Below are positions 9,750 through 29,854 of a stretch of 64,000 nt of DNA, one piece after another. Both the position numbers and the translations under genes were made by a program. Origin of the DNA: Branchiostoma floridae (taxonomy: Eukaryota > Chordata > Leptocardii > Amphioxiformes > Branchiostomatidae); contig NC_049984.1 in NCBI RefSeq assembly GCF_000003815.2, positions 23,748,946-23,812,945 on the forward strand, read 5' to 3'. The first letter of the stretch is position 1. Each line of letters begins with the position of its first letter. The notes below the pieces were generated by a model that made no database searches, was not told the DNA's origin, and was given only the letters and a program-made list of their open reading frames with translations.

Positions 9750-10594
9750 TCAGTAGCCGGTGAAGACAGTGATTGTGTTTTTATTGGTCACAACCAGCTG
9801 TCCCCCCGGACCCACTGCCACCCCTGATGGGTATTCAGCACGGGCGGCAATGTGGCGGACATACACGCCCCGGCCGGTGTACATCACCACGCGCTGGTTA
9901 TCTTGGTCCACCACCATGATGTGACCAGAACTGTCCACGCAGATGCCTTCGGGATACCTCAGCTCACCACCACCCACTCCCGGTCCTCCGAACCTCATCA
10001 CGTACCGGCCGGCCTCGTCATACTTGTAGATGAAGTGAGTGCCGAAGTCGGAGACGAAGATGTCTCCTTTCCCGTCAACGGCGACGAACATAGGTGTCTT
10101 CATCCGCGGACCGACGCCCCACAGGAGTGTCCCATCCGGCGTGAAGGCCTGCACACCACCACGGCTGTAACCGTCAGACCATGTGACGAACACGTGGTCA
10201 TTGTGCAGACCCACGGCCATTCCGCGGACCCCTCCCCGTGGCACAGTGTCAGGCAGGTCAAAGTTGGCTTTGAGATGGCCAGCCCTGCTGACCTGTACCA
10301 CGGAGTCAGGGCTGGCAGGGTATCCAATCATCAAGACCCACAGATGGCCATCCTTGTCGATGGACACATCATATGGCTCCTTTGATGGGTACCCTAGCCC
10401 AGTAGCTTGTGGGAACTGGTACAGGTAAGCACCTTCCATGCTGTAGACTTGGAGGTGCGATTTAGACCGATCAGCCACCCAGATCTTGTTGTCGGGGGAA
10501 ACTGCCACTCCGCGTGGGCTGCGCAGTTTTCCAGCCCCCGGCTCATCACCGAATGTGATGATGTGTGGCCTGCTGGCTTGGTCAGAAGTTTCTG
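9750..10594 (-). CDS. NHL copy 1 exon 6 (propeller)
   Basis: The exon starts after TTTTCTTAG and completes a GCA codon with the last base of exon 5. It ends with TGA at 9750-9752 after TVFTGY. Six NHL-like blades are visible, each with a G(V/I)xV or similar strand followed by DxxGxIxVxD: SPRGVAVSPDNKIWVAD, YDVSIDKDGHLWVL, VRGMAVGLHNDHVFVT, MFVAVDGKGDIFVSD, PEGICVDSSGHIMVVD and PSGVAVGPGGQLVV. NHL propellers bind proteins, sugars or RNA; here the domain would be extracellular. Confidence 0.93.
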
Positions 10595-13500
10595 CTAAGA
10601 AAAACAAACATGGCCATATTCTAGTTGGGCTGTCACATCAATATTTGCTGAATAAATCATTATGATTATTAAGACAGTGATCCGATTTTTTTTTTTTCAC
10701 AGTCCACGTTTCTTTTCACCACCGGGAGGTGCGATTCCTTTGGTTTTCTTTAACCCTATTCAGCCCGGGGGGGGGGGGGGGGGGGGGCTTTTGAGGCCCG
10801 CGCTAACTTTGATGTCCTATAACGCCAGAACGGCTTACGCTAGAGCCACCAAATTTGGTGAGTTTTCCAAAAATATTGTTGGCAACAATTTCACGAAGTT
10901 TGACAAATTTTCCATTTCTTCGTGTTGCCATGGCAACCGTTTGTTGACAGGCTGTTTTGCCAAAAATCAGTATTTTTGGTTCTAACAATGTATTTTTCAC
11001 ATTTATTTGCTATATTACTGCTATTTTGTTACATAAATAAAATCTAATATTATCTAGCATATCTTTCATAATTACATATGCATAAATTATGCTAATTTGA
11101 TGACGTCATCAGCCCAAAATCCAAGATGGCGGACCGTATGGCCAGATCAAGAATAAGGGTGACTCTGCGGATATGAAACACTGNNNNNNNNNNNNNNNNN
11201 NNNNNNNNNNNNNNNNNNNNNNNNNNNNNNNNNNNNNNNNNNNNNNNNNNNNNNNNNNNNNNNNNNNNNNNNNNNNNNNNNNNCTTTGTGATTATTTGTT
11301 GAAAAAAAAGTATTTTTAAAAATTCAAGGTGCTGGATATAATATGGCGGAGCCCAACTGGTATCTTAGATGTGCATGACGTCATTTTATGACGTCATTTT
11401 GACGTCATTGATGTTACTATTGGCAACGCAAGTCGTAATAAACATTATTATTCTGTTATCTGCAGTTGTTGTTACATTTTGGTAGAATAACTTTTTTTTA
11501 AGTTTTCTGAGAATACCCTTTTTTCATGGGTCCGGCCAATATAATCAAATTGATGACGTCATAATTACGTCATCTTACGTCAACGTAACGTCAAACGACA
11601 AAAACTTGTCAGATATTATGTCGATATCATGTCCTAAAAATTTGGTGGCCCTACGGCACGTCGTTTTAGAGTTATAGGACTTCAAAGTGGAGGGCCTCAA
11701 AAGCCCCCCCCCCCCCGGTCCAGGGATGACCAAAAAAGCCCGGTCTGAATAGGGTTAACATAAATGTTAACGTTAATAATGAGATGGGCAAAGATCACTG
11801 CTGATGGATGTCGTGGAGCCCCAACGACTACTGTGGCTATGGGCCGTGAGTGAGTGAGTGAGTGATTGAGTGAGTGAGTGAGCGAGCGAGCGAGTGAGTG
11901 AGTGAGTAAGTGAGTGAGTGAGTGAGTGAGTGATAATGAGTGATAATGAGTACAACCAGCCAGTCTTTTTACGTCAAGTAATGACACTGCTGTACTAAAA
12001 CCTTTTTGGTGTTTGGCTGTACAAAAACTAAATTGACGTGCGTCAGAAATTAAACAAGAAAAATTCAAATTTCTGTTTTAGATTAACTTTAAAAAACAGT
12101 GTGAAGATAAGAAAAATAAAGCTAAAATAGGCTAAATAAGAAATGTTATGACAAACCTCCAGTGTCCGTACGGGTGGAACCCGGGATGCTGATTGGTGCA
12201 GGTCCAGCTGCTTCCGTCTCCATGGTGATGCCGTGTGAGGGACCACGCCCAGGGACCTGACTCACCTAAACGGTTAGGATTGGTCAAGTAAGTATGCAGC
12301 ATTCTCAATAACTATCTATCACATCTGATTTAGAATGGGTCAAGTAAGTATGCAGCATTCTCAATTTCTATCTATCACATCTGATTTAGAACGGGTCAAG
12401 TAAGTATGCAGCATTCTCAATTTCTATCTATCACATCTGATTTAGAACGGGTCAGGTAAGTATGCAACATTCTCACTTTCTATCTATCACATCTGATTTA
12501 GAATGGGTCAAGTAAGTACACACCATTTTCAATTTTTTGTCTATCACATCTGATTTAGAATGGGTCAAGTCAGTATGCAGCATTCTCAATTTCTATGTAT
12601 CACATCTGATTTAGATTGGGTCAAGTAAGTATACAGCAATCACATCTGATTTCTATCTATCACATCTGATTTAGAATGGGTCAAGTAAGTACGCACCATT
12701 TTCTATTTTTTGTCTATCACATCTGATTTAGAATGGGTCAAGTAAGTATGCAGCATTCTCAATTTCTATCTATCACATCTGATTTAGATTGAGTCAAGTA
12801 AGTATACAGCAATCACATCTGATTTCTATCTATCACATCTGATTTAGAATGGGTCAAGTAAGTATGCAGCATTCTCAATTTTTGTCTATCCCATCTGATT
12901 CAGAATGGGTCAAGTCAGTATGCAGCATTCTCAATTTCTATCTATCACATCTGATTTAGATTGGGTCAAGCAAGTTTGCAGCATTCCCAATTTCTATCTA
13001 TCACATCTGAATTAGAATGGGTCAAGTAGGTATGCAGCATTCTCTATTTCTATCTATCACATCTGATTTAGAATGGGTCAAGTAAGTAAACAGCATTCTC
13101 AATTTCTATCTATCACATCTGGTTTAGAATGGGTCAAGAAAGTGTGTAGCATTCTCTATTTCTATCTATCACATCCAATTTAGATTGGGTCAAGTCAGTT
13201 TGCAGCATTCTCAAATTCTATCTATTACATCTGATTTAGAACGGGTCAAGTAGGTATGCAGCATTCTCTATTTCTATCTATCACATCTTAGAATGGGTCA
13301 AGTAAGTAAGTAGCATTCTCAATTTCTATCTATCACATCTGATTTAGAACGGGTCAAGTAAGTATGCAGCAATCACATCTGATTTCTATCTATCACATCT
13401 GATTTAGAATGGGTCAAGTAAGTACGCACCATTTTCAATTTTTTNNNNNNNNNNNNNNNNNNNNNNNNNNNNNNNNNNNNNNNNNNNNNNNNNNNNNNNN

Positions 13501-16500
13501 NNNNNNNNNNNNNNNNNNNNNNNNNNNNNNNNNNNNNNNNNNNNNNNNNNNNNNNNNNNNNNNNNNNNNNNNNNNNNNNNNNNNNNNNNNNNNNNNNNNN
13601 NNNNNNNNNNNNNNNNNNNNNNNNNNNNNNNNNNNNNNNNNNNNNNNNNNNNNNNNNNNNNNNNNNNNNNNNNNNNNNNNNNNNNNNNNNNNNNNNNNNN
13701 NNNNNNNNNNNNNNNNNNNNNNNNNNNNNNNNNNNNNNNNNNNNNNNNNNNNNNNCAAGTAAGTATGCAGCATTCTCAATTTCTGTCTATCCCATCTGAT
13801 TTAGAATGGGTCAAGTCAGTATGCAGCATTCTCAATTTCTATCTATCACATCTGATTTAGAATGGGTCAAGCAAGTATGCACCATTCTCAATTTCTATCT
13901 ATCACATCTGATTTAGAACGGGTCAAGTAAGTATGCAGCATTCTCAATTTTAATCTATCACATCTGATTATGAACAGGTCAAGTAAGTATGCAGCATTCT
14001 CAATTTCTATCTATTACATCTGATTTAGAATGGGTCAAGTAAGTACGCACCATTTTCTATTTTTTGTCTATCACATCTGATTTAGAATGGGTCAAGTAAG
14101 TATGCAGCATTCTCAATTTTTGCTCCGCAAAAATGTGTTTTACAATCCATGAATTTTCTACCGACACCAAGAAAATAAAGATGTGGCCAGAGACGAAATC
14201 AGGTTTGGCGGAACACAACAATTTATTCCTCAAACGGGAAATCAATCGAATATGTATATCAGTTTGAGTTACCCACGAAGCAATAACACAAATGACGTCA
14301 ATAGGTTTTGGGGGTAATCCCCATGGGAATACACAGCACGTCAATCAGCTAATAGTCCAATTACATCAATATTATGACATTGTCAAACATGAGAAAATAC
14401 AAACAAAATTGTTTACATGGTAAAGCTTACAAATCTAACCACAGAGCTAAGATAAACAACACAAAAAAATGCTGAGGAACCACAGTTGAAATGCTTAAAT
14501 TAGCAAGAGAAAGACAGAGAACAAGCATAAAATTTGCAACGAAATCCTTAATCGACCGTTCAGACTGAAAGGTTAATTAGATAAGAAAGAAAACAGCTAA
14601 AGTGGACAAACAGGTGATGTCGAAGGCAATCACGGTATGTATGAAACAGAAGTGTTGACGTACAAATGGATGACTAGATATGTTGTCTAAGCGATCAACA
14701 TGTTAACTACACGTCAATAGCTGCTAGTAGCTTTACTATATCTAGCCGCTGGTGACTGCCTATGGTAAGGCTGATACGGAAACAAGCAAATTCAAAATGA
14801 TATTTGGACAACATCGGATTCCTCAATAACGGTGAAGGCAATGCTGTACAAGGCTGTAGGGCGTATCTTCCGCCAAGGTTAATAGTGGAGCTACATGTAT
14901 AGACAAAAACGCGTACGTCACTAACGTCCTATACTTTTTAGAGGCGTACAGTCACAGGATAATCTAACGTACTTAATGCACCTTTCTACGGCCTAATATA
15001 AAACTTGAAGTAAATATATTCTGATATGGGTCTGGATACAGCTGTCTGTTACATACTATACTTGTCTCATTCATTTGAAAGTCGCAAGATATAGGCTATA
15101 CAATGTGCCTTTTATGGCTGAGTCATAAAGGAAGTTGCAACTAAGCCGTGTTTATTGTCAACGCTGAACTGTGAGTGCGCAGAAGGAATTTCAAGAGAGG
15201 AACTTATGAAATAGGCACGTTGACCGGTGTATTGGACGACAGAGCTGTCAAATGGAATGCCCAAACTTCATGGCTGTTTGAAATCGAGAATAGTGCCGCA
15301 ATGCCGGCTACCCCAACCCTAACTCCCGTAGGAAGGGGGAGGTAGGATTTACCCATTGCTGTAAACGGCAGGACAGGTGTTTACTCACCTTAAGTAGGAA
15401 TTGTCAAGAAGTTAATGTATGGGTCCAGTTTGTTCCGGTACAAGTGCGTATTATCTATTGTATATTCTAGAATCGTTGAATATAAGCACTAGACATAAGA
15501 TGAGGAAGAGGCAACCTGATGATCACTTTTTATAGACCTTAGACTAGTGTCATTGTATTAATTGACTTATCAATGTTGCCATACAATTGTACCATGTACA
15601 AATGTCATGCAATACAGTTCATTATTTCATTAATTCTTCTCCTACAGCTTCAAGATTAGATAAGCCGCTTATTGTGTAAACAAGTACATGTAAAGCGATG
15701 GAACAATGTAACTAATACTAGTAGCACTTAAATGGGAACAAGACATAGTGCATGGCGGAGTGGGAAGGCGTTAACATGGTGCCGACCGAAACTGACACCT
15801 GCAGTGAATTATTTACGAGAAAGTTTCTTAATACTATATCAGTCGGGAAGGTCTATGTTCATAAACCAATGGTACAAGTATCAGTCGCAGCAGAAAACAA
15901 AATGTCTATATGTGAGACAGTTAGTGCAGCCAGTTGGGAGGGCCCAGGTACTAGCTGAAGCGGACTCTGCCTGCAGATGAAACTGTAGACTCGGTCGTTG
16001 ACAGGATGTCCGTGCAGGAGGTTTGGACTGGGAACAGGCAGGTGTCCAGGCCCGTACACATTTGGGGCTCCGCGGTATCGGGTCAGTGGGCTGTCAAGGC
16101 GGGCACCAGCCGTCCTCCGGTGNNNNNNNNNNNNNNNNNNNNNNNNNNNNNNNNNNNNNNNNNNNNNNNNNNNNNNNNNNNNNNNNNNNNNNNNNNNNNN
16201 NNNNNNNNNNNNNNNNNNNNNNNNNNNNNNNNNNNNNNNNNNNNNNNNNNNNNNNNNNNNNNNNNNNNNNNNNNNNNNNNNNNNNNNNNNNNNNNNNNNN
16301 NNNNNNNNNNNNNNNNNNNNNNNNNNNNNNNNNNNNNNNNNNNNNNNNNNNNNNNNNNNNNNNNNNNNNNNNNNNNNNNNNNNNNNNNNNNNNNNNNNNN
16401 NNNNNNNNNNNNNNNNNNNNNNNNNNNNNNNNNNNNNNNNNNNNNNNNNNNNNNNNNNNNNNNNNNNNNNNNNNNNNNNNNNNNNNNNNNNNNNNNNNNN

Positions 16501-19500
16501 NNNNNNNNNNNNNNNNNNNNNNNNNNNNNNNNNNNNNNNNNNNNNNNNNNNNNNNNNNNNNNNNNNNNNNNNNNNNNNNNNNNNNNNNNNNNNNNNNNNN
16601 NNNNNNNNNNNNNNNNNNNNNNNNNNNNNNNNNNNNNNNNNNNNNNNNNNNNNNNNNNNNNNNNNNNNNNNNNNNNNNNNNNNNNNNNNNNNNNNNNNNN
16701 NNNNNNNNNNNNNNNNNNNNNNNNNNNNNNNNNNNNNATCTACATGTCGGAGGGAAGAAGAGGCATCCTACACACTTCTCCCCGCGACATTGGCCGTGTT
16801 AGAAACAGTGCAGTCGAATAACTGTATTGCGCAGAGACAAAACATGTGCCGAAATGATTGTCACCGCTCTTGAATTTGACAGGTCCTGGTAGACGACAGG
16901 ACAATTGCCAGCGGGAGCCTTTAACACTGTTGTACCTGGCGGCTTTTGGCGCCTGTAAATTTATTAAGTGGCAACCGTCGATTACAAAGAGATGTCGGCA
17001 TCACGATGGGGTGGCTTTGGTACAATTAGATTTACGCCGTGGGCACACAGATCGAAGAGAAATGTCTACCGAACACGGGAGGTTCATGTTAATTCCATGT
17101 GTTTCAAACGCATAATGTAAATGAGCATATACGTCGTGCTCTCAGAAAGCACTGCAACAGCAGCGTAGCAAAATGAAACGCAATATGGACGGCATAGATC
17201 CACCAGGTAAATTATTTCGAATTAGTAATGCAGAGGAAACTATGAGGAAAAACCTGGGGGGGTGTTAACATTGACCAAGGAGGGCTCGATGTCGAAACAA
17301 GGAACCGCATAATTTGACCGCGCGTTGAAGAGTGACCAATTGTCCCTCGTTTCCCGTTATCTGTCGGGTAATCAAATAATATACTTCGACTATATCTGTG
17401 ATATCTTTATATGTATATATGTTTTGACTTGTTGTGACCCGTACTTAGCTCGGTTGGGCAAGAATGTACAATAAGTGTCTTCATTCATTCATTCAATATA
17501 TGGACCAATGAGATCGCGACACGTATTTGCCTAGTGGCAGGGAACCTGTCTTGATTACGAAGACGCCGGAATTACTAACATTGTTGAGAGAATTTTGGAA
17601 ATGAACAGAATAAGTGCATCGGGGTGTTATGGCAAACCTCTCGATGTTAGATTCATATATAAAATGCACTGGGGTAATTCTGGCTCCCCACGCGAGCTGG
17701 GTTCCTACTAATAAGCGAGTAGAGCAGAGGTACCAAGTATGTAAAGAGAGCAATTAGAGGCCCTATGAAAACAAGGCATCGGCTAGTCTATAATGGCATT
17801 TGTAAACAAACGGTTAGCGGAGGTGAAAAAACAGGGCTTGGCAATACTCAATTGTCTGCAAGATAAATTGAAAAAAAAAAAAAAAAATACAATATGTCGC
17901 ATGTCGATAAATTCAGAATGTTAAGAACTGCGCCATTCGGACAGAACAAATCGTCCGCCAGCACATATACAAGTAACGATAATTGTGCCTCACGAACAGA
18001 ACAAAATCGTCTGCCGGCACATATACAAGTAATAATAATTGTGCCTCACGGGCAGAACAAAATCGCCTGCCGGCACATATAAATATAATGATAATTGTGC
18101 CTCACGGACAGAACAAAATCGTCTGCCGGCACATATACAAGTAATAATAATTGTGCCTCACGGGCAGAACAAAATCGTCTGCCGGCACATATACAAGTAA
18201 TAATAATTGTGCCTCACGGACAGAACAAATTCGTCTGCCGGCACATATAAACTTAATAATACTTCGCCACACGGACAGAATAAATCGTCTGCCATAAATG
18301 GAATTACCCACCGTTCAAAACTTGTTTTACTAGCTGAATAATAGGACACGAAATGCGACGAGCATGCGTGAGTGGGGGATCTAATGTCTGGCTGAAAACG
18401 ACTGCTTAATTACGGAGGTAACAAAATTTGCATAAACGTGATCTTGAGAAATCTGTTAACATGACAAGTACAGCTTTGTAACAAATTGTACACGGAGATC
18501 CACTTGTGCGCACATTGAATCCCCTGGGGTATACATTCGACCTTATGCGTATTCATGACATCGGACATTTGGACAAGTACGCAAAACTATTAATCAAATT
18601 ACAACTTCACGGCCACAGCCGTCGTTGGGCCCGACAAACGTATCTTTGGTACGACTAGAGCTCAAATAGAAGAGAAGAAAAAAAAAATTGGTGTGAGGAA
18701 CTGTCATAAAATTAGTTTATGCTAGAAAAGAATTTGTCTAGGAGTTGCAGACGCGATTAAGATTTATCTCTTAAATGCGAATAGCGGCGAAGTAAAGTCG
18801 TAGCTACGGCGTGTATATTATGACATATGTGAACCATACGACATGACAAATTATAGAGCAAGGAAATTTTGTCATGCTAAAGCTGGGTGGGTTGGGCGGA
18901 AAATTTTCAGAGCAAAAGTCTGTGTGCTTTCACGTCGGGATCTGTTGGTGTAATGACCCCTTTGAGGAATTCGTGCCGCCGCGTCCTGTCGGCGCCCGGA
19001 CCACATACGGAGTTTGTCGGTACCAAACAAAAGGATGTTTTTGGTATTAATTAGCACGGCGGCATCGCCATGGCCTGGCTTTGCTCGTCCAAGCTTATCG
19101 CCTAATTACAAAGGGCGCCGCGAGGAGCAACACTATAGTCATTAATGTCGGCTCATATTCATTCCTTTCAAAACATTATTTTTGCTCCGCAAAAATGTGT
19201 TTTACAATCCATGAATTTTCTACCGACACCAAGAAAATAAAGATGTGGCCAGAGACGAAATCAGGTTTGGCGGAACACAACAATTTATTCCTCAAACGGG
19301 AAATCAATCGAATATGTATATCAGTTTGAGTTACCCACGAAGCAATAACACAAATGACGTCAATAGGTTTTGGGGGTAATCCCCATGGGAATACACAGCA
19401 CGTCAATCAGCTAATAGTCCAATTACATCAATATTATGACATTGTCAAACATGAGAAAATACAAACAAAATTGTTTACATGGTAAAGCTTACAAATCTAA

Positions 19501-22500
19501 CCACCATACAGCTCACCAACTGTGAGCAACCAAGACGCCCAAGAAGGCGCGAAATGCGACAAGGCTATTACACACACGATGCCTCCACCATGATCTAGAA
19601 TACATGAAGGTCCGGTAGATAGGGTTTAGCGGGATTAATGCCCCCAAAACGCTTTTGTACTACTGCAAGTTACCGAAATCATCCAGATGGAGTCCGTAAC
19701 GAAATTAGGTTCTTTCTGCCACAATTTTGTTCGGTACCATATGTGGACCGACGGAGCTGAGTCGAAATTATGAACGGGAATGTGGGAGGAAGTCGGGCAT
19801 GTTACGGGGAGACTTCGGTCAGAACCACCTTCCGAACAGATTAAATTTCAAAAACTGTGACATGCCAAGGCTACTAAATCACATGCAATGTCTTCTGGAA
19901 CCCATTGGCAAAAAATTTCACAGATGTCGTTGTACCCTAGCTCTACGTAGCAATGTGAACACGCGTTTGCTGCTAGATAGAGAGCACGGTAGATTTTGCG
20001 ATAGTACAAATCGGTACGCCATGACATTTGAATTGTCGTGTAAGAAACCCGAAAGTTTGGGCGAAATGCTCGTCCGGGGACTGCCGTTGTACAACGCAGA
20101 ACAAGGAAACCAAACCGGGAAACTAAAGAGTACCCCGTAAGAACAAATTATGTTCAACATTGGGGTATTCATAAAAGGACAAGTAACAAGATAAAAAGTA
20201 GGGCGGCTCACCGTAGAGTTTGAGTTGAGTTCAGACGGGCGCCTGTCCGGTCACTAATGAAAGGTTCGACTAGACGCGTGCGACGTTGACGGGTAGGTCA
20301 CCTCGATAGGCTGATGACAGGCCAAGTTCAGGAAGAAAAGGGGGTCCAGTGGGTACGTGGCTTACTGGCTTCGATGCGGGTTCTTGCCGGGCTGGCTCCG
20401 CTGATCCGTGGTGCGGCTCCGAAGAGGTCGAGTACGTAGCGCCCTGGCTTCAAAGAAACAATTTTCGGCCAAGGAAGTCATCGGTACACGAACTGCGATC
20501 TGCTGGGACAGGGAGTATTCCGGATTTCCCAGTCTGATGCCAACACATGAGACGAAAACTCAGGAAATATTCAAGAAAAGTAAGAAAATTTTCAGAGCAA
20601 AAGTCTGTGTGCTTTCACGTCGGGATCTGTTGGTGTAATGACCCCTTTGAGGAATTCGTGCCGCCGCGTCCTGTCGGCGCCCGGACCACATACGGAGTTT
20701 GTCGGTACCAAACAAAAGGATGTTTTTGGTATTAATTAGCACGGCGGCATCGCCATGGCCTGGCTTTGCTCGTCCAAGCTTATCGCCTAATTACAAAGGG
20801 CGCCGCGAGGAGCAACACTATAGTCATTTATGTCGGCTCATATTCATTCCTTTCAAAACATTATTTCTATCTATCACATCTGATTTAGATTGAGTCAAGT
20901 AAGTATACAGCAATCACATCTGATTTCTATCTATCACATCTTAGAATGGGTCAAGTAAGTAAGTAGCATTCTCAATTTCTATCTATCACATCTGATTTAG
21001 AACGGGTCAAGTAAGTATGCAGCAATCACATCTGATTTCTATCTATCACATCTGATTTAAAATGGGTCAAGTAAGTATGCACCATTCTCAATTTCTTGTC
21101 TATCACATCTGATTTAGAATGGGTCAAGTAAGTATGCAGCATTCTCAATTTCTATCTATCACATCTGATTTAGAATGGGTCAAGTAAGTAAGCAAGCATC
21201 ATTCTCAATTTCTATCTATCACATCTGATTTAGAATGGGCCAAGTAAGTATGCAGTATTCTCAAATTCTATCTATCACATATGATTTAGAACGGGTCAAG
21301 TAAATATGCAGCATTCTCAATTTTTATCTACCAAATCTGATTTAAAATGAGCCAAGTACGTATGCAGCATTCTCAATTTCTATCTATCACATCTGATTTA
21401 GAATGTGTTAAGTAAGTAAGCAGCATTCTCAATTTCTATCTATCAAATCTGATTTAGAATGGGTCAAGTAAGTAAGCATCATTCTCAATTTCTATCTATC
21501 ACATCCGGTTTAGAATGGGTCAAGTAAGTATGCAACATTCTCAATTTCTATCTATCACATCTGATTTAGAATGGGTCAAGTAAGTATGCAACATTCTCAA
21601 TTTTCTATCTATTACATCTGATTTAGAATGGGTCAAGTAAGTATGCAACATTCTCAATTTCTATCTATCACATCTGATTTAGAATGGGTCAAGTAAGTAT
21701 GCAACATTCTCAATTTCTATCTATTACATCTGATTTAGAATGGGTCAAGTAAGTATGCACCATTCTCAATTTCTATCTATCACATCTGATTAAGAATGGC
21801 TCATATATGTATGCAGCATTCTCAATTTCTATCTATCACATCTGATTTAGAACGGGTCAAGTAAGTATGCAGCAATCACATCTGATTTCTATCTATCACA
21901 TCTGATTTAAAATGGGTCAAGTAAGTATGCACCATTCTCAATTTCTTGTCTATCACATCTGATTTAGAATGGGTCAAGTAAGTATGCAGCATTCTCAATT
22001 TCTATCTATCACATCTGATTTAGAATGGGTCAAGTAAGTAAGCAAGCATCATTCTCAATTTCTATCTATCACATCTGATTTAGAATGGGCCAAGTAAGTA
22101 TGCAGTATTCTCAAATTCTATCTATCACATATGATTTAGAACGGGTCAAGTAAATATGCAGCATTCTCAATTTTTATCTACCAAATCTGATTTAAAATGA
22201 GCCAAGTACGTATGCAGCATTCTCAATTTCTATCTATCACATCTGATTTAGAATGTGTTAAGTAAGTAAGCAGCATTCTCAATTTCTATCTATCAAATCT
22301 GATTTAGAATGGGTCAAGTAAGTAAGCATCATTCTCAATTTCTATCTATCACATCCGGTTTAGAATGGGTCAAGTAAGTATGCAACATTCTCAATTTATA
22401 TCTATCACATCTGATTTAGAATGGGTCAAGTAAGTATGCATCATTCCCAATTTCTATCTATCACATCTGATTTAGAATGGGTCATGTCAGTATGCAGCAT

Positions 22501-25500
22501 TCTCAATTTCTGTCTATCACATCTGATTTAGAATGTGTTAAGTAAGTAAGCAGTATTCTCAATTTCAATCTATCACATCTAATTTTGCTTCGTAAAGAAG
22601 GCGTGATACGACTGCATTAGGTTTTCCAAGGACACAAAGGGCTCCATGTTTTAACAACTTACTATTGTATGGTTCTTTAAGAATGCGGGGTATTGCTATA
22701 CTATGTTTGGTTTTCGTTGATGCAGAAAAACGTCTCCAATAGTCATCTAGATCTTTTTCTTAATCATCACCAAGGCTGCACTGATGCTACCTGAGCTCCC
22801 AGAGTCAGCCAATGAGGGCCTATAACGGTGCACACACCAATTCTTCCGCGACAGGGGTCCGAGATAGTGCGCGACAAAAATGTGACGAAAGGGTCTCGAG
22901 GGTCCGTGTTTGAGTTCAAATTTCTCATAATCTGCTGCGAAGTGGCATTTAATACTGGCATGGCTAAAAAGCGTAAGAAGTGATGTGTTTTTGGTGCGAA
23001 TTGGTTTTGGGCCCGAGGGTCACTTCCTTGTATTTCTACGCGTTGGAAGTGATTCGCCGTTGACCCAGATTTCCCGTCCATATGCGGTCTGTGAGCCGTG
23101 TTGGTATGCCTCGCGCGTCGGGTTATTGTAAAAATCTCAGTGTTACGATTTTCTTTATTTTTTGCCTGATTAATCTTAGGTGTATTCTCTTTCCGACAAT
23201 ATCAGTCATTTTCATGACTAAACTATAGGTGATGGGTTTATTTCCACGTCAAAATTCCCCTTTTTGTGCATACTTTTTTGCGTGAAAAAAACTTTTCTCC
23301 CCCCAAAATTATGAAAAGTAGAGAGAGTGAAGAAACTGAAACCGGGCTGTTCTTAAAGCTGGAGTGATACCCGTCATTCCCATATACGACTTTTCTGCTT
23401 TAGATCTATTTTCTTTAAGAGACGGCCTCTCGACTTGGGGGTGCGCAGCCTCGATTTGAGACCCCAAATAAACTGGGGTGTGCACCGATAAGTACTGACC
23501 TTGATGACGTCAGCAGATGTCACTTTGCCAGTCCTCATCAGTACAGCAGGAACAGCAGAACTGCCAGTGGGCCCTGCTGTGGCTGTAGCCTGCTTTGTCG
23601 GCGCAGGAATACTTTGCAAGGCAGCACTGTCAGTAGTGTTAGGTACCGCTGTGGCTATAGCCAGCTGTAAAGGAGTAAGTCCACAATGTTTGCTGTGTCA
23701 TATTTGCAGATTTACATTTACAGAATATTCATAGTAAGGTTTATCATATCCTTGTCTTGGTATATGTTTGGATGTGCCTTTTTATCGCTTGTTTGTTTAT
23801 GTGAATATCCAGTATAAATCAGTAAACTTACAGAGCCATGGTTCCAAGGTCGGGAGTTGAGGTGCGTCAGGAGCACGGGTAGCACGATCACCAATGTTAC
23901 CAAGGCACCCGTTGCCATGCCAACGCACAACAGTAGTCGTGGTGACAGGCGGTGACGTAGCTGTCCCCAAATGGTACGGTTCTCATGGTCTGAGGGCGGA
24001 CAAAAAAAAATACATTATTGGTTACCGACTCAAATCAAGTTTCACTGCTACTATTTTTTGTCTAATGTTTGAATTGTATCAGTTCATCAAGTGGCATACT
24101 TCAGCTCTACTTTGAAAACATCCCTTCCCTGTATACTTCTGATGATTCTGAACAATAGAAAGCTATGGATGTCAATAGGTTTTTATCCCTTTAAAGAGAG
24201 GAATGTCACAATTCTTCTGTAACACCAACCTGGAGGCTGGTTGGAGTTGTACATCGGGTTTGGTTGCAGCTGGTTGATGACGTCCTGCGGGTTCGATAAC
24301 GGATTCGGCCCGCCCGGCACTTGTTGGGCCCCGCAGGTCGGTCTCGCGGGCCTCGGGGTAGAGGGGACAGTCGGTGCGTCTCGGTTCAGAGCTGGCCCGA
24401 GACGCATCCCGAACGATTCTCCATCCTCATAGACGTGTGTGGCGGCCGCCACAGGTTGGGCCCCATCGGTGGTTCGTCCCGGCCTCGGGGTGGAGGGGAC
24501 GGGAGGGGTGCCGCGAGGGTCGTGTTTCAGGGGTGGTCCGAGACGCATCCCGAACGTGTCTCCATCCTCATACACGTGTGTGGCGGCCGCCACAGGTTGG
24601 GATGACCCACCGACTTCTTTCGGAGTTGTTTGTTGACCATCAGCACTTCCATCGGGTCCTAAAGAATAAAGACATATGAACTTCAGACCACGACCTCACA
24701 CCTTTTCCAATTAATGTTAGCCTTTCACCTTTTTCCAATTAATGTTAGCCTTTTCGAATGACGTATTACAAATGTTTCTTAATGATTATGCAAATAAGTC
24801 CTTACTAGTATAAATTATTCAGTGCACCATCTTCTCTACCCAAACAACATAAGTTTATTGTAGCCTTTCCTCATTCATTATGCAGAAAATTAGTAACACC
24901 TTGACTGGCTTGTCTAATGATGCTCAAATTTACTGAACGTCCAAACGCCACAAGAATGAAATTCCCGTCATCAGCCACAACAATATTATAATAATTTCTG
25001 AAAATGCACATAAGATATTGATTTGCATGATTGACATCTATAGATCTTCCTTTTTGAATAACACGTGTCATATTTTTGAATAGTCCTATTAATATAATGA
25101 AACGCAGTAGATCTATAGCATTTCCTAACCTAAATCATTAATAAAAATTAGCCCCTAGTTTGCACAATCACCATCGTATTAATTCAATAAATATCAACCC
25201 ATCTACATAACAAATATCATAATGATCCAGCAACTATATCCTGAATTATTATCCTTTTAAATTGTGAAAGAAGTCTGTCTCAGCAGTGAAAAACTACTCC
25301 GGGGCCTAAATCTATACCACTTCTGCAAGAACCCAAGATCTACTATATTAACCATCATGTCATGTCCAGAACTTGAGATATCAACCCTACTGAAGTACTT
25401 TTGAAAACCTCTAGGATGCCCTTAATCCATGCAATTCTTCATTATACCAACATCATAATTCATATCACAAAGTTCCATTCTCAACTTATTAGGCTGTGCT

Positions 25501-28500
25501 GTTTTTAAACAAAGAAGCAAAAACGCGCACACAAAAGGTAAACTTGATAGTAACGAAGACCGATTTGAACTCCTCATAAATGAATAAAGGTTTTAATGAA
25601 CAAACAACCAAACAAAAGTAATAAATAGATCTCTCGTAGATCCAGGTCTATATAAAAGTATTTCTTCGGTCACATAACTTTTAATGTTGTTTATGACAAT
25701 TATAAATCATGACTTTTGTTGTCAAGAACAACATAAACTCTCTGCGACCTTGTCTGGATTTGTGAAACCATTGATTTTATATTAGAATATTGTGAAAGTA
25801 ATCAGACGGCGATTGCACTGCGACCTTGCTGGGATGTAAATTTCATTTGCCTAGCTCTTGATTTTATGATTATAATATTGTTCAAAATGAAACAGTAAGA
25901 CTAAAAATTCAATAAAACGCAAAGCATAAATCAAAGAATTGTTTCTGGTCTATGTAACTCTTAGAAAATGCCACCGGGAAAAATCTATCAAATTTGAGGT
26001 CGCAGAGCGACCGTAGCGAGGTCGCCTCCCTGGTGGAATGTGGATATAACACGTGTGTTAGTGTTATGTGTTTGGACTCTGTTATAGCGGAGGTAAGTGC
26101 ACTAAAGCTTTCAACAGACCACGGCTTTTCTTGCCTATAGCCACAATACATTCCTCATATATATCTATTTTTCAACTGACGCATCTAACATACTTTTCTG
26201 ATAAACCGCCTTCTTATGATAATACAAACTAGAAAATTAAGATAATAATAGATATCATAACCTCTGCCTCATGACGTTATGCAAATGTTCATTTCAAAAG
26301 TAATGAGGATCTTGTTTTATACGTACCCTTATATTGCTTTACAGCGTATATCCTAGTTATCGTTTCAAATATGCATGAGGAAAGCTGTTATTATATGTGC
26401 AGTACAGACTCATTTGCTCAGGTAATGAGATTCAAATATACCGAGAGGGAATGTTTCTGCAGGGCTTGAGTAAATCAGGGTTACACAACGAGCATAAACA
26501 AAGTCTAGAACTACAGAGAGAATAATCTATGATCATTTAGCAAATATCTGCTTTGTCTAATAATGTCTAAAAATGTGTACCCCATATACTCTTCTACATT
26601 ACAAAAAAGACGTCAGAAAAATCGCTACTATATAGGCTATAATATAGCACAGACTCGTAGACGGACGTAATGAGATTCAAATATCTCAATAGGAAATGTT
26701 TCACAGCGCTTGGCTAAATCATAATTTTACAACTACTAGATCAGCGACAAATATCTGGATTGCATCTACGTATACCGCTAAGCCAAGTCAAGGGGCGGCG
26801 TTTAATGGCCGAATCTGAATGTAAGAATGTTATCATAAAGACAATTTTGACTGAATTTCTTATGCATATTCAACATTAAGCACACCCATGCCCACGTTGT
26901 GCTCCACGGGCACTTTTGATATAAGCATGGCACACATAGTGATGATCTTTGCAGAGAAAAAATACTACGAGATTAGAAAATGACCCTTACTTAAGTCTGC
27001 AAAATTGGGCAACAAGTCTTAGGATCAAGGACATCTTTTTTAAATCTTGATTCCGTCTTGGAGTGTTTATAGAAGGTCTTCTCAAAGAAAGACAGACTAT
27101 CTCAGACCCAAGTCAGCTAGTCTTGTTTCAGCATTCAGGGACGAAACTATCGCTAGGGGGGGCGAAACCAACCAACAGACACACACAGACAAACGCAAAT
27201 TAGCAAATCAGTCTCCCTCAGCAAAGAGGTTTTACGACTTTGGCAACGTTATCAAAGGTCTATACACATATCCGAGTGTTAGATACATGTACACATAGGA
27301 AACGTACATGACTACAAATGCGCTTGTTAGATAAAAGAGGCTGTATGGTGGGGTCATAAGTAGAAGAAAGGATCAGAAAATGTACCGTGGTGAGCGGGAC
27401 ACAAACTCAGTTACACTTCGGATAGTTTTATTCACGCTATAGCAGCGACACCTAGCTGCGGTGCGAAGTATTGCCCTGGTAGGAAAATGGTACTTTTATG
27501 TGTGCAAAGAAACCTTTGTTATGCACATTATTATCCCCATTTGGAAATTATCTATCATATTCAAAATATCCAAAATAGTCCGGCGTAGACAAGATGAGCT
27601 GTGAGAGGAAATGTTGCATGGACCCTGTCAACACTGGTACTAATGGATGGTTTACATGAACATTCATGACTGGAATATAACTATTCAATACTTTTAGAGG
27701 CAACAGGTGCTAGTCTTGAAATCCCAACCTGCTATGCAGGACGAAAACGATCAGTCCCCTAAAACTGGAATATATTAATGTTACTACAGGATGGAGTAAA
27801 AGAAAATGAATCCTGGGATAGTGATTGTAATGCAGACTGCACGCTGTCCTGTTTTGGTATTAGCAAAAGGCTACAAAATTATTCCCTCCCCAACGACAAC
27901 GTTTAATATTTTTCTGCAGGATTTTGCTTGTTTCTTGATATGCTTTTATACCAGGCTAAAGTCTAATTCATGATACGAGAAACAATTAATTATAAGTACG
28001 TGGAAAGATCAGAAATCTTGCAATTTCTAAAGTTAACGTTATGATTTTTCATAGCTCTAGATGTGTATGTTGCATTTTTCATTGTCTCACAAGTACGAGG
28101 GCCCACAACGACAAATTCGTTTTAGTTACTGCCGCGATTCAAGCTGTTTTCTTGTCTGATTTGAACTATGTAAGTTTTAGAACATGTTGCTTGGGTCATG
28201 TCAACACAAGTAGTCGGTTTACATGAACATTTATGACTAGAGAATACCTATTCAATACTTAATACCTACACATGGTAGTCTTTAAAGCCCTAACTTGCTA
28301 TACTGGACTATAAAATTAGTAGTCCTCTAAATTCATGGGTCAGTATGATAATCGACTGCGAAACATTATGAGTAAAAAATTGAATACTGCGACAGTTACC
28401 GTAATTCAGACTGTACGATCTAGTGTTTTAGTAGGCTACAATATACGTATTCAATTCTTTGTCACTACAAATAGGACTAAAACGGATATGATATGATAGG

Positions 28501-29854
28501 TCGGCATGGGGTGTCAGCAATATAAGTTTACAAAATTATACACCTCCCGAAGTAGACTCTGTATCATGTTTTTTTAAATGCTAAATATGTGAAAATTCGA
28601 TGATCAGAACTACAATTTTTAAGTTACAGTATGATAATAATCTATAATCACTAGATATGTGATTTTTATTGCCTTATTTGAAGATATCAGGGTCCATAGC
28701 GTCGAAATCGTTTGAAATGATTATACATTGTATTATTGTATTGTGTTCTTAACTGCTTTCCTGGTTTATCTTATTTCAGTCTATCAATGATAAGATTACA
28801 GTTCGTCTGCTGTAGCTAAACCGTGGGAGAAACAGTCAGATAAGCATGTTCACATGGTTAAGCTCCCTGTATGAATGCAGTGCATATTGCAATGTTATAA
28901 TTGGCACTTATCCTGAGTGTCATCCTACTTAGTTAACCGGGGCTTCCATACCCTCCCCCTCACTAAGCACATTTTGTTGGTGAGGGAAGAGTATGGGATG
29001 AGGGGGGTAGGTTGGTGAGGGGAGATTACCGGAGCCCCGCGGTACATTGGCGGCTGCGCTGCGGCCGAACGATTTGACACAACGCTCTACGAATTTCGTC
29101 GATGAAAAATGATTTTCTTTTATTCTTTGTGTGTTTCGTCGTCTATTTAGTCATATCTGTACGTTTTGTAAGTCAAGGGTAACATACATCCAATCTAGAA
29201 CGCAGCGACACTGCTAAGGTACCGTAGCCCAGTAAGATACCCCCATAATTGTGATGATACTCGAGCTAAGTTGAACTAACCTGGTGGTTGATCTAGGTCC
29301 GCGTTGTACATCGGATTCAGGGGCAGGTTGACGATGTCTTCCTCCCGCATCCAGTACACACCGGCCCTTTTTGCGTTTCTCCGTTTGGGGAGAAGAAGCC
29401 GACCCTGTCCGGAGGGACGGGACGGATCCTCCGGAGTCTGTCCGGAGGGACGGGATGGTTCGCCAGGAGCCTGTCCGGCGGGATGAGTCGGACCCTCCGG
29501 AGTCTGTTCGGGGGGACGAGGCGGTTCCTCCGGCGTTTGTCCGGAGGGACGAGACGATCCTCCACGACGACGACGACGGCGTTTTTTCGGGGGAAGAGGC
29601 GGCGGTACCTCTGAAGCCTTGTGGAGCGATGCCATCGGCATGTACCCATTATCTTTCAGAGATTTCATAGGGGTGTAGCCGTTTTCTACCGAAGATATCG
29701 ACGCCATCGGAGTATAGCCATTGTCTACCAAAGATGCCATTGGCATGTACCCACTTTCCTCACGTGCCGACCCTCCTGGGCCAACCACCTCTGTCGTTAT
29801 TTGGCTATTTGGTGTTCGGGGCGGCTGAAGCTCGTCTCCCGGAGCCTCCGCCAT
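9750..29854 (-). CDS. Type II membrane NHL-propeller protein with YxxM/NPxY tail, copy 1 (six-exon model)
   Basis: Six exons (29281-29854, 24230-24658, 23832-23989, 23500-23664, 12157-12265, 9750-10594) total 2280 bases, with matching phases and no stop, giving 759 residues. Residues 1-352 look cytoplasmic: YxxM motifs at Tyr36, 47, 60 and 71 (YMPM, YTPM, YTPM, YMPM), PPPLPPKK followed by six Arg (84-97), proline repeats, and NPMY at 180-183 and 325-328. RHRLSPR precedes a hydrophobic span at about 353-375. There is no signal peptide, so type II topology is inferred. A Thr/Ala/Pro-rich stalk (388-442) and a linker lead to a six-bladed NHL propeller (about 480-759). YxxM is the binding consensus of PI3-kinase p85 SH2 domains, and NPxY binds PTB domains or acts in endocytosis. 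I know no named family with this combination. Extra exons inside the large introns cannot be excluded. Confidence 0.85.
10754..11754. mobile_element. piggyBac-type non-autonomous element
   Basis: It is flanked on both sides by TTAA (10750-10753 and 11755-11758). Ends are CCCTATTCAG and CTGAATAGGG, the CCC...GGG/TTAA signature of piggyBac. Longer inverted repeats include long G and C homopolymer runs. It has no transposase ORF and contains a 100-base assembly gap. It sits in intron 5 of NHL copy 1 and is absent at the matching site of copy 2 (around 38900). Confidence 0.85.
11184..11283. other. Assembly gap (100 N)
   Basis: A run of exactly 100 N, probably a gap of unknown size inside the piggyBac-type element. 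Confidence 0.99.
11846..11933. repeat. GAGT microsatellite
   Basis: Tetranucleotide (GTGA)n with a few GCGA units, in intron 5 of copy 1. The homologous array in copy 2 is at 38985-39091. Confidence 0.95.
12157..12265 (-). CDS. NHL copy 1 exon 5 (linker)
   Basis: 36 codons plus one base, from VSQVPGRGPSHGITMETE to STRTDTG. The acceptor is CCGTTTAG|GTGAG; use of the alternative AG nine bases on (GAGTCAG) would drop VSQ. The donor is GGAG|GTTTGT. Low-complexity Pro/Gly/Thr linker between stalk and propeller. Confidence 0.75.
12266..14119 (-). repeat. 56-bp minisatellite in intron 4 of NHL copy 1, block A
   Basis: About 27 readable units, interrupted by an N gap. Each + strand unit holds CACATCTGATTTAGAATGGG, TCAAGTAAGTATGCAGCATT and CTCAATTTCTAT. 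Occasional shorter or compound units contain AGCAATCACATCTGATTTC. The array begins at the acceptor of exon 5 and its first unit is homologous to the acceptor region. Confidence 0.95.
13445..13755. other. Assembly gap (311 N) in the minisatellite
   Basis: An N run inside block A, so the true number of units is unknown. Confidence 0.99.
14120..14442. repeat. End X, first copy
   Basis: About 323 bp, with no difference seen by eye from 19182-19504. The ORF through it appears identically in both copies only because the DNA is identical. Confidence 0.9.
16123..16737. other. Assembly gap (615 N) in element E1
   Basis: An N run; ORFs that cross it are artefacts. Confidence 0.99.
17395..17496 (+). 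repeat. Possible LINE 3' tail with ATTC repeat
   Basis: GTACTTAGCTCGGTTGGGCA followed by an AATAAG-like signal and CATTCATTCATTC. This looks like the 3' end of a CR1/L2-like LINE; no reverse-transcriptase sequence precedes it. Confidence 0.4.
17939..18297. repeat. 56-bp tandem repeat inside E1
   Basis: About 6.4 units of 55-56 bp, each with GGACAGAACAAAATCGTCTG, CCGGCACATATACAAGTAAT and AATTGTGCCTCAC. The period equals that of the intron minisatellite, but the sequence is different. Confidence 0.92.
18899..19178. repeat. End Y, first copy
   Basis: 280 bp, matching 20584-20863 with one difference seen (ATTAATG versus ATTTATG). Confidence 0.9.
19182..20863. mobile_element. Element E2: shared ends X and Y, private interior
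   Basis: It follows E1 head to tail, separated only by TTT. End X is 19182-19504 and end Y 20584-20863; it then returns to the minisatellite at CTATCTATCAC. The interior (19505-20583) holds a 137-codon ORF at 19727-20140 with no recognised domain. TTT stands on the left, between the elements and on the right, so a 3-bp TTT target duplication is possible. Confidence 0.7.
20867..22575 (-). repeat. 56-bp minisatellite, block B, with an 850-bp higher-order repeat
   Basis: About 30 units. The segment near 20985-21590 recurs almost unchanged at 21835-22440, an offset of exactly 850 bp, including the same private variants (for example AAGCAAGCATC and CACATCCGGTT). A block of roughly 15 units was therefore duplicated recently. 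Confidence 0.93.
22821..23491. mobile_element. TIR element beside the exon 4 donor, copy 1 only
   Basis: Ends ACGGTGCACACACCAA and its complement GGGGTGTGCACCG. About 670 bp, rather CpG-rich. It is absent from copy 2, where exon 4 is followed directly by GGCCCTCAT. The right end is 8-9 bases from the exon 4 donor. Confidence 0.65.
23500..23664 (-). CDS. NHL copy 1 exon 4 (extracellular stalk)
   Basis: 55 codons, phase 0 at both ends, acceptor CTTTACAG and donor AAG|GTCAGT. It reads LAIATAVPNTTDSAALQSIP through TGKVTSADVIK. Rich in Ala, Thr, Ser and Pro and so a candidate O-glycosylated stalk, with one NTT N-glycosylation sequon. Confidence 0.8.
23832..23989 (-). CDS. NHL copy 1 exon 3 (transmembrane)
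   Basis: Begins after CCCTCAG with two bases completing a GAC codon and encodes 52 residues, from HENRTIWGQLRHRLSPR to RPWNHGS. A hydrophobic run of about 23 residues (LLLCVGMATGALVTLVIV...) follows basic residues, which predicts the N-terminus in the cytosol. Donor CT|GTAAGT is strong. Confidence 0.88.
24230..24658 (-). CDS. NHL copy 1 exon 2 (cytoplasmic, duplicated 47-residue module)
   Basis: 142 codons plus split codons, acceptor TATTCTTTAG. After a 22-residue lead it carries two tandem modules of about 47 residues, each beginning AAATHVYEDG(D/E)(T/S)FGMRLGP and ending in a Pro-rich stretch, then PNPLSNPQDVINQLQPNPMY and NSNQPP. Copy 2 has only one module. The exon ends with NPMY...QPP exactly as exon 1 does. 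Confidence 0.87.
27600..28420. repeat. Intron 1 long tandem repeat, copy 1
   Basis: Two diverged units about 567 bp apart share GTTTACATGAACATT, TACCTATTCAATACTT-like and GTACGAGGGCCCACAACG-type phrases. Copy 2 shows three or more units at about 46730-48120. Confidence 0.6.
28937..29040. repeat. Foldback hairpin in intron 1, copy 1
   Basis: CCGGGGCTTCCATACCCTCC with CCCTCACTAA faces TTGGTGAGGGGAGA and CCGGAGCCCCG. It is retained at 48681-48759 in copy 2, where the loop differs. Confidence 0.7.
29281..29854 (-). CDS. NHL copy 1 exon 1 (signalling tail)
   Basis: It starts at ATG 29854-29852 (MAEAPGDELQPP), the first in-frame Met after an upstream TAG and shared with copy 2. 191 codons plus one base; donor CCAG|GTTAGT. 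Order: four YxxM motifs within 40 residues, PPPLPPKK followed by Arg6, about five 11-residue proline repeats (pattern EPSRPSGQTPE), a basic patch KRRNAKR, then VYWMREEDIVNLPLNPMY. This is an intrinsically disordered docking tail by appearance. Confidence 0.9.

What the first reader, a model, noticed from the sequence alone, without database searches (positions are those of the whole stretch)
9750..29854. A type II membrane receptor joining an IRS-like YxxM tail to an extracellular NHL propeller
The reconstructed protein has four YxxM motifs in 40 residues (two YMPM, two YTPM, all preceded by Gly), a class II SH3-type PPPLPPK site, two NPMY motifs, one membrane span, a mucin-like stalk and a six-bladed NHL propeller. 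YMPM is a preferred site of PI3-kinase p85 SH2 domains (as in IRS-1), and NPxY recruits PTB adaptors or drives endocytosis. I know no family with this order. If tyrosines are phosphorylated, ligand binding by the propeller would recruit PI3-kinase directly.
Basis: partly seen in the sequence, partly recalled or inferred. Interest (0 to 1): 0.88.

Follow-up and report, generated by a model that had tools for sequence, protein, structure and literature searches.

The report
Lancelet propeller receptor with PI3-kinase tail
A small family of lancelet genes appears to make cell-surface proteins that join a fast-changing propeller-shaped recognition head to a tail with strictly kept sites of the kind that call in PI3-kinase, which would be a new kind of signalling, probably immune, receptor in an invertebrate chordate.

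Summary
On the minus strand (29854-9750) six exons join in frame at five GT/AG junctions into a 758-residue protein with four YxPM motifs in 39 residues, PPPLPPK, two NPMY, one membrane span, a stalk and an NHL propeller (AF2 pLDDT 89.7, 24 strands). A tandem second copy lies at 49508-37879, and seven more copies with the same exon order lie elsewhere on the contig. All 9 plus an orphan first exon keep 4 of 4 YxPM. New here: the motifs are invariant, while the propeller's DA/BC-loop face evolves under positive selection (omega 1.7 against 0.4). Its sister propellers lie in a large C17 cluster, which shows the same pattern; the one member examined is DED-Death-TRADD-N-NHL. Best reading: a diversifying recognition receptor signalling by phosphotyrosine, mainly PI3-kinase. 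Architecture and selection are shown computationally; transcripts, topology, phosphorylation and ligand are inferred. No other animal genome could be searched.

The parts
29281..29854 (-). Gene A exon 1: cytoplasmic tail with four YxPM, PPPLPPK, basic run, proline-rich repeats, first NPMY
   Evidence: the YxxM module is found at 10 places of the genome
29738..29749 (-). YMPM motif 1 (residue 36)
29705..29716 (-). YTPM motif 2 (residue 47)
29666..29677 (-). YTPM motif 3 (residue 60)
29633..29644 (-). YMPM motif 4 (residue 71)
29585..29605 (-). PPPLPPK, SH3-type site (site class recalled)
   Evidence: kept in 9 of 10 copies, PPPLSPK in g2
29306..29317 (-). first NPMY
   Evidence: 10 of 10 copies
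24230..24658 (-). Gene A exon 2: two ATHVYEDG repeats and second NPMY
24249..24260 (-). second NPMY
   Evidence: also in the other eight C6 copies
23832..23989 (-). Gene A exon 3: transmembrane exon
23859..23936 (-). transmembrane segment LLLCVGMATGALVTLVIVLPVLLTHL
23500..23664 (-). Gene A exon 4: stalk, ends TSADVIK
12157..12265 (-). Gene A exon 5: stalk, phase 0 to 1
9750..10591 (-). Gene A exon 6: six-bladed NHL propeller and stop
49001..49508 (-). Gene B (tandem copy) exon 1, four YxPM
44941..45228 (-). Gene B exon 2
44549..44706 (-). Gene B exon 3, transmembrane
43998..44162 (-). Gene B exon 4, stalk
39307..39415 (-). Gene B exon 5, stalk
37879..38738 (-). Gene B exon 6, NHL propeller
12274..22585 (.). 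Part of intron 4 of gene A with 56-bp minisatellite arrays at 12274-13441, 13756-14119 and 20863-22585 (assembly gaps inside)
39424..43477 (.). Part of intron 4 of gene B with the same 56-bp minisatellite at 39424-41542 and 42633-43477

Best explanation
A multi-copy lancelet family of type II cell-surface receptors. The C-terminal NHL propeller sits outside the cell on a stalk and binds variable ligands, most likely microbial or other non-self molecules, with its DA/BC-loop face; that face is under positive selection while the propeller scaffold is conserved. Binding or clustering lets a Src-type kinase, possibly held by PPPLPPK, phosphorylate the four YxPM sites, which recruit the p85 SH2 domains of PI3-kinase; the two NPMY sites drive endocytosis or bind PTB adaptors. 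The likely outcome is engulfment or uptake of the bound particle. Shown by computation: gene structure, copies, motif conservation, propeller fold, selection pattern, sister relation to the C17 propellers. Inferred: topology in vivo, phosphorylation, p85 binding, ligand class and cellular outcome.
For: Same exon order in nine C6 copies. YxPM kept in 40 of 40 places over 10 copies, and 12 of 12 Y/P/M columns invariant against 14 of 40 around them. Met+3 unchanged in nine copies although 4.6 neutral hydrophobic replacements are expected (P = 0.01); the P codons of motifs 2-4 vary silently, so recency alone does not explain it. Tail exon: no class under positive selection (M2a p = 0.78). Propeller, seven intact copies: DA+BC loops omega 1.67, rest 0.41; omega_top = 1 rejected, p = 3e-4; M2a against M1a 2dl = 57.3, 14 of 17 sites in these loops. 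With strands taken from the AF2 model: top 1.70, bottom 0.58, strands 0.43, omega_top = 1 rejected, p = 4e-4. Three-copy clade alone: 2.53, p = 1e-4. Four sets of pairs that share no sequence: Fisher p 0.001-0.006. Three exon matches to p85 iSH2 lie together on C15. The C171 relatives carry 2-4 YDNE/YEND (YxN, Grb2-type by recall) in exon-2 repeats where the C6 copies mostly carry YEDG, as expected if the tyrosines are SH2 docking sites. Sister propellers sit in the C17 cluster; one member has DED, Death and TRADD-N domains. Such proteins are proposed to recognise invader molecules (PMC8195603, passages).
Against: No transcript, protein or ligand data. The tail exon as a whole is not unusually conserved (omega 0.54; pairwise 0.26-0.58): it is the motifs and the block before NPMY that do not change. 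YTPM is a less typical p85 site than YMPM (recalled). GYxxM also fits YxxPhi sorting signals. NPMY lacks a hydrophobic residue at -5. Simple pair counting gives DA/BC loops 1.29 with an interval that includes 1 (0.91-1.87). In the 23M clade alone omega_top above 1 is not significant (1.45, p = 0.087; 1.42, p = 0.14). The C171 trio points the same way but not significantly (1.26, 0.68-2.83). The codon tests are my own implementation and assume one tree; gene conversion between tandem copies can inflate the site test. 3 of the 17 selected sites lie outside the DA/BC loops; by the model's strands, 11 of 17 are in top loops, 3 at strand ends and 3 in bottom loops. Two of nine NHL exons (g6, g9) are frameshifted in this assembly. 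Exon 5 has a weak donor.
Confidence: 0.55

Rival explanations
1. Allorecognition, gamete-recognition or homophilic adhesion receptor: the propeller's variable face binds self-polymorphic partners rather than microbes, with the same phosphotyrosine tail.
For: Positive selection on a recognition face fits self/non-self conflict as well as pathogen conflict; teneurins are transmembrane proteins with an extracellular NHL propeller (PMC6297184, passages; adhesion role recalled).
Against: The closest propellers found lie in a cluster whose examined member has DED/Death/TRADD-N domains, a kind tied to apoptosis and immunity.
Confidence: 0.22
2. Uptake or lysosome-sorting receptor without phosphotyrosine signalling: GYxPM and NPMY are AP-2/AP-3 and PTB sorting signals.
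For: Gly before Tyr in 38 of 40 motifs resembles GYxxPhi lysosomal signals (recalled); two NPxY.
Against: Met at +3 never replaced by L, I, V or F in nine copies (P = 0.01); the C171 relatives carry YDNE/YEND, which are not YxxPhi.
Confidence: 0.13
3. Tail and propeller exons belong to different genes; the fusion is a modelling artefact.
For: No RNA evidence; 11-kb intron with minisatellites and assembly gaps between stalk and NHL in gene A; weak exon-5 donor.
Against: Same order, strand and compatible phases in nine C6 copies, where the TM-to-NHL distance falls to about 1.4 kb (g8); C16 keeps TM, stalk and NHL exons together and C171 exon 2 with NHL.
Confidence: 0.05
4. Loops are merely unconstrained (relaxed selection); no recognition role.
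For: Loops of any propeller vary more; pair counting gives an interval that includes 1; 23M clade alone does not exceed 1 significantly.
Against: Omega above 1 in the 7-copy set and the 3-copy clade, bottom loops at 0.58 in the 7-copy set; the C17 cluster gives 2.03, p = 3e-14, by likelihood, though 1.11 (0.83-1.52) by pair counting.
Confidence: 0.12

Closest known systems
Branchiostoma DED-TRADD-N beta-propeller proteins (PMC8195603; here the C17 cluster)
   Same: Sister NHL propellers, about 43-50% identical; the same face under positive selection
   Different: The one C17 gene read has DED, Death and TRADD-N upstream of the NHL-bearing ORF, and no YxxM in these four ORFs; a hydrophobic stretch past its TRADD-N match may be intronic, so a membrane span is not excluded there. 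The paper calls the propellers WD40
Teneurins
   Same: Membrane proteins with intracellular N-terminus carrying proline-rich SH3 sites and an extracellular six-bladed NHL propeller (PMC6297184, passages)
   Different: No EGF, YD or other teneurin domain matched; TEN_NHL scores 22.1, under its 27.1 cut-off (exon 5 not scanned)
IRS proteins
   Same: Several GYMPM-type sites (IRS-1 sites recalled)
   Different: IRS are cytosolic with PH and PTB domains (recalled); none matched
TRIM-NHL proteins (TRIM2/3/71, Thin, Brat)
   Same: Propeller sequence (best PDB matches by sequence)
   Different: No RING or B-box matched; membrane span and tail instead
YxxM immune receptors and adaptors (CD28, DAP10 with type II NKG2D; recalled)
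   Same: Works like them: phospho-YxxM calling in PI3-kinase
   Different: Four sites in one chain, NHL ectodomain, no Ig or lectin domain matched
Coral tachylectin-2 (PMC2880987, title and abstract start in listing)
   Same: Putative immunity gene under positive selection; a beta-propeller lectin (fold recalled)
   Different: Not an NHL propeller and not this receptor architecture (recalled)

Membership tests
NHL propeller domain | NHL repeats forming a six-bladed propeller | tested here: met
   Pfam 6e-29; 24 strands, pLDDT 89.7
Type II single-pass membrane protein | One internal span, no signal peptide, positive side N-terminal | tested here: met
   By hydropathy and charge count only; topology itself not tested
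PI3-kinase (YxxM) receptor | Conserved YxxM sites in the cytoplasmic tail | tested here: met
   40 of 40 over 10 copies
PI3-kinase (YxxM) receptor | Phosphorylation-dependent p85 binding | not testable with these tools
   needs pull-down
IRS family | PH and PTB domains | tested here: not met
   no Pfam family in the N-terminal 442 residues (exons 1-4) at E up to 1
Teneurin | EGF, TEN_NHL and YD-repeat ectodomain | tested here: not met
   TEN_NHL below cut-off, no other teneurin domain (exon 5, 36 residues, not scanned); stop directly after the NHL domain
TRIM-NHL | RING/B-box before NHL | tested here: not met
DED/Death/TRADD-N propeller proteins | Death-fold domains joined to the propeller | tested here: not met
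   none in the gene model; propeller is sister to theirs
Diversifying recognition receptor | Positive selection concentrated on one face of the ectodomain | tested here: met
   own codon code, gene conversion not excluded; 23M clade alone not significant; pair counting interval includes 1
Pattern-recognition receptor | Direct binding of a microbial ligand | not testable with these tools
   needs binding assay

The most novel reading that the evidence does not exclude
Lancelets use one rapidly diversifying NHL propeller as a general recognition module, split into a surface arm (type II receptors with exchangeable SH2-docking tails: YxxM/PI3-kinase in the C6 copies, YxN/Grb2-type in the C171 copies) and an intracellular arm (DED-Death-TRADD-N-NHL, a cluster of tens of copies), a propeller counterpart of the Toll/NLR use of leucine-rich repeats.
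Probability: 0.35. Interest if true: 0.88.

Novelty: new variant of a known kind. Interest (0 to 1): 0.72.

Why it matters
It would add a recognition fold (the NHL propeller) to the known repertoire of diversifying animal receptors and couple it directly to PI3-kinase without an Ig, lectin or leucine-rich-repeat ectodomain. It also gives a sister family with the same selected face, probably intracellular, so ligand classes could be compared inside and outside the cell. Amphioxus already serves as a model for the origin of phosphotyrosine immune receptors (PMC8211107, PMC10199209; passages read), so the claim can be tested with existing methods.

Tried and rejected
Chance motifs: rejected (0 of 20000 shuffles; conservation in 10 copies). 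Two separate genes: judged unlikely (nine copies in the same order). Simple joining of stalk exon 4 to the NHL exon: rejected, phases 0 and 1 do not fit; exon 5 found instead. Haplotype duplicates as the only source of copies: not supported as a general explanation, since the flanks of exon 1 align only in part; some close pairs (g5/g6, g6/g7, g1/g2 at 90-92% in their main pieces) could still be alleles. YxxM module used in other gene families: no hit outside the family above noise (10 hits plus one at E 8.3). My first label of the C17 cluster as TRIM-NHL was wrong: the one member examined has no RING or B-box in its NHL-bearing ORF but has DED, Death and TRADD-N ORFs upstream; the other 11 used were not checked for these. 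A first statement of mine that the 56-bp minisatellite is missing from the short introns of g6-g9 was wrong: single hits to the unit are there. A first count of 3-5 YxN in C171 took in YNNF, which lies at the start of the ORF and may be intronic; without it the counts are 4, 2 and 3. Other ectodomains behind the same tail: C5 has only exon 1, with no other exon found in the 8.2 kb read downstream (L052), and C3 has tail and TM exons but no NHL hit nearby (L053); neither gave an alternative ectodomain. Literature: ten searches over an open-access library listed no paper whose title or abstract start describes this family; of 7 papers opened I read passages only. Searches listed 10 of 20 and 10 of 301 papers. 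That is weak evidence of novelty. Structure search against the PDB was not possible.

Rows dropped: g6 and g9 from all NHL codon tests (frameshifts; 2 of 9); C5 from the exon-1 codon model (9 of 10 used); C171 and C16 from the ML tests; columns inserted relative to gene A; for the C17 set, columns filled in fewer than 10 of 12 rows; 12 C17 propellers used of the many listed; two of seven other NHL loci too short for the tree (L004, L005). The tree used (g7,(g5,g8)); one search used (g8,(g5,g7)); results agree.
Full report
What is there. The window lies in a 513-Mb genome (G000, contig C6) that I take, from size and contig layout recalled, to be a lancelet (Branchiostoma floridae); no tool named it. 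Reading the splice sites gives six exons with GT/AG borders and matching phases and a 758-residue protein from ATG 29854 to stop 9750. The exon between stalk and propeller is at 12265-12157. It was found because exon 4 ends in phase 0 and the NHL exon begins in phase 1, and because it is conserved in all nine C6 copies with an in-frame two-codon indel. Its donor is weak and RNA should confirm it.

It is a family. A second full copy is in the same window (49508-37879), about 83-98% identical in DNA, exon by exon. Genome searches with exon 1, exons 2-3 and the NHL exon show seven more C6 copies with the same order (two at 23.30-23.33 Mb; five at 3.14-4.34 Mb), plus an orphan exon 1 on C5, three copies on C171 and one on C16 in which no YxxM exon was hit, and a C3 copy with tail and TM exons but no NHL hit. 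Two of the nine NHL exons (g6, g9) are frameshifted in this assembly; I left them as they are.

The tail. All ten exon-1 copies keep four YxPM motifs (GYMPM first in all; +1 is M, T or I), one NPMY, and PPPLPPK (PPPLSPK in g2). The second NPMY, in exon 2, is kept in all nine C6 copies. Y, P and M columns are 12 of 12 invariant against 14 of 40 in the surrounding stretch (Fisher 9e-5) and 73 of 135 in the rest of the exon (p = 0.001). The exon as a whole is only moderately conserved (omega 0.54). P codons of motifs 2-4 vary silently, and at neutral rates 4.6 Met-to-bulky-hydrophobic changes would be expected over the four Met codons of nine copies; none is seen (P = 0.01). This favours a p85-type requirement for Met at +3 over a bare YxxPhi sorting signal (both specificities recalled). 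In the C171 copies the exon-2 repeats read YDNE and YEND (4, 2 and 3 in the main frame of L047, L048 and L049), the Grb2 type (recalled), where the C6 copies read YEDG (one YENG in g9). The L049 exon is split over two frames. So different members may call different SH2 proteins. Three exon matches to p85 iSH2, close together on C15, point to one p85 gene.

Topology. The one strong hydrophobic stretch begins at residue 353; 4 K/R precede it within 15 residues and 1 follows; the N-terminus is not hydrophobic. This is the type II pattern, not a test. The stalk (exons 4 and 5, 91 residues, 36% Ser/Thr/Pro) has one sequon (Asn396); the propeller has a single Cys.

The propeller. Pfam NHL 6e-29; best PDB relatives by sequence are TRIM3, Thin, TRIM71 and TRIM2 propellers. 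The AF2 model from 13 lancelet propellers has pLDDT 89.7, pTM 0.89 and 24 strands, six blades of four, with the N-terminal strand completing the last blade.

Selection. I divided the propeller into DA and BC loops (one face, the top in WD40/Brat usage, recalled), AB and CD loops (the other face) and strands before counting. Pairwise pN/pS over seven intact C6 copies: 1.29 (0.91-1.87) for DA/BC loops, 0.40 (0.27-0.60) for the rest. Codon likelihood (own GY94 code): 1.67 and 0.41, one-omega rejected at 3e-22, omega_top = 1 rejected at 3e-4; M2a against M1a 2dl = 57.3; 14 of 17 sites with posterior above 0.8 in DA/BC loops, which hold 34% of residues. With strands from the AF2 model: 1.70, bottom 0.58, strands 0.43; by that stricter division 11 of the 17 sites are in top loops, 3 at strand ends and 3 in bottom loops. 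The 3-copy clade, where topology cannot matter: 2.53, p = 1e-4; the 4-copy clade: 1.45, p = 0.087, though its M2a test gives p = 1e-5 with 13 of 17 sites in DA/BC loops. Four sets of pairs sharing no sequence give odds ratios of 2.6-3.0, p 0.001-0.006. The C171 trio gives 1.26 (0.68-2.83) and 0.32. Exon 1 shows no such class (p = 0.78). Gene conversion was not modelled.

The sister family. The 11 receptor propellers form one clade (100/100), joined to the C17 cluster (98/95) apart from the four other NHLs in the tree; a fifth row labelled 'other', L006, lies in the C17 cluster itself. As a comparison, 12 C17 propellers gave omega 2.03 in DA/BC loops and 0.33 elsewhere (p = 3e-14), with 27 of 29 selected sites in those loops; pair counting gave 1.11 (0.83-1.52) and 0.34. 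So the pattern is not special to the receptors. Reading upstream of one C17 gene found DED (4.5e-17), Death (5.6e-20) and TRADD-N (1e-8) ORFs; I did not work out its splicing. PMC8195603 (passages) describes Branchiostoma expansions of DED-TRADD-N proteins with variable C-terminal propellers, 13-129 per species, and suggests that such repeats might recognise invaders. That paper calls the propellers WD40; here the match is NHL.

Mechanism. I commit to a diversifying recognition receptor that signals through tyrosine phosphorylation, chiefly PI3-kinase, with NPMY-driven uptake. Steps shown: gene structure, motif conservation, fold, selection. Steps inferred: surface location, ligand, kinase, p85 binding, engulfment. 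In print, amphioxus Lck phosphorylates an amphioxus LRR receptor, with an inhibitory effect, in human cell lines (PMC8211107, passages), and an amphioxus LRR receptor that binds bacteria acts through Grb2 (PMC10199209, passages), so the needed machinery is plausible in this animal. PMC2575513 (passages) reports many amphioxus-specific domain combinations in innate receptors; NHL does not occur in its main text.

Verdict. Observation confirmed; interpretation partly supported and extended. Architecture confidence about 0.9; phosphotyrosine/PI3-kinase coupling about 0.65; recognition of variable ligands about 0.65; immune rather than self-recognition function about 0.55.

Noticed in passing
window 1451-2686 and 4490-5044 (+): Two open stretches of a copper amine oxidase gene (Pfam PF01179, 9.6e-62 and 4.3e-31).
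   Followed up: partly
G000:C17 18.3-18.95 Mb; L064, L035, L036, L054-L063: Large tandem cluster of NHL-propeller genes; the one examined has DED, Death and TRADD-N ORFs upstream, and 12 propellers show strong positive selection on DA/BC loops by likelihood. Worth a study of its own.
   Followed up: partly
window 12274-14119, 20863-22585, 39424-41542, 42633-43477: The same 56-bp minisatellite fills much of intron 4 of both window copies and is also in g1 and g2; g6-g9 loci give one or two hits to the unit. The arrays end 8 bases before exon 5 (12274 and 39424 against 12265 and 39415), so they may have grown from the intron segment next to that acceptor.
   Followed up: partly
L047, L048, L049 (C171): Receptor relatives whose exon-2 repeats carry YDNE/YEND (4, 2 and 3; Grb2 type by recall) instead of YEDG, upstream of an NHL exon.
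   Followed up: partly
L029 (g6) and L034 (g9): NHL exons with frameshifts in this assembly; decaying copies or assembly errors.
   Followed up: no
L013 and L052 (C5): Orphan first exon, 87% identical over 2 kb to the g9 region, with no exon 2 found in the 8.2 kb read downstream.
   Followed up: partly
L020, L045, L053 (C3): Diverged tail exon with long proline-rich repeats, NPMY and NPIY sites and a TM exon, no NHL hit nearby; ectodomain unknown.
   Followed up: partly
L027, L042 (g7) and L029, L041 (g6): g6 and g7 carry a second stalk exon (also ending TSADVIK) preceded by a partial exon-5-like stretch, so the stalk may lengthen by exon duplication; C16 also has two.
   Followed up: no
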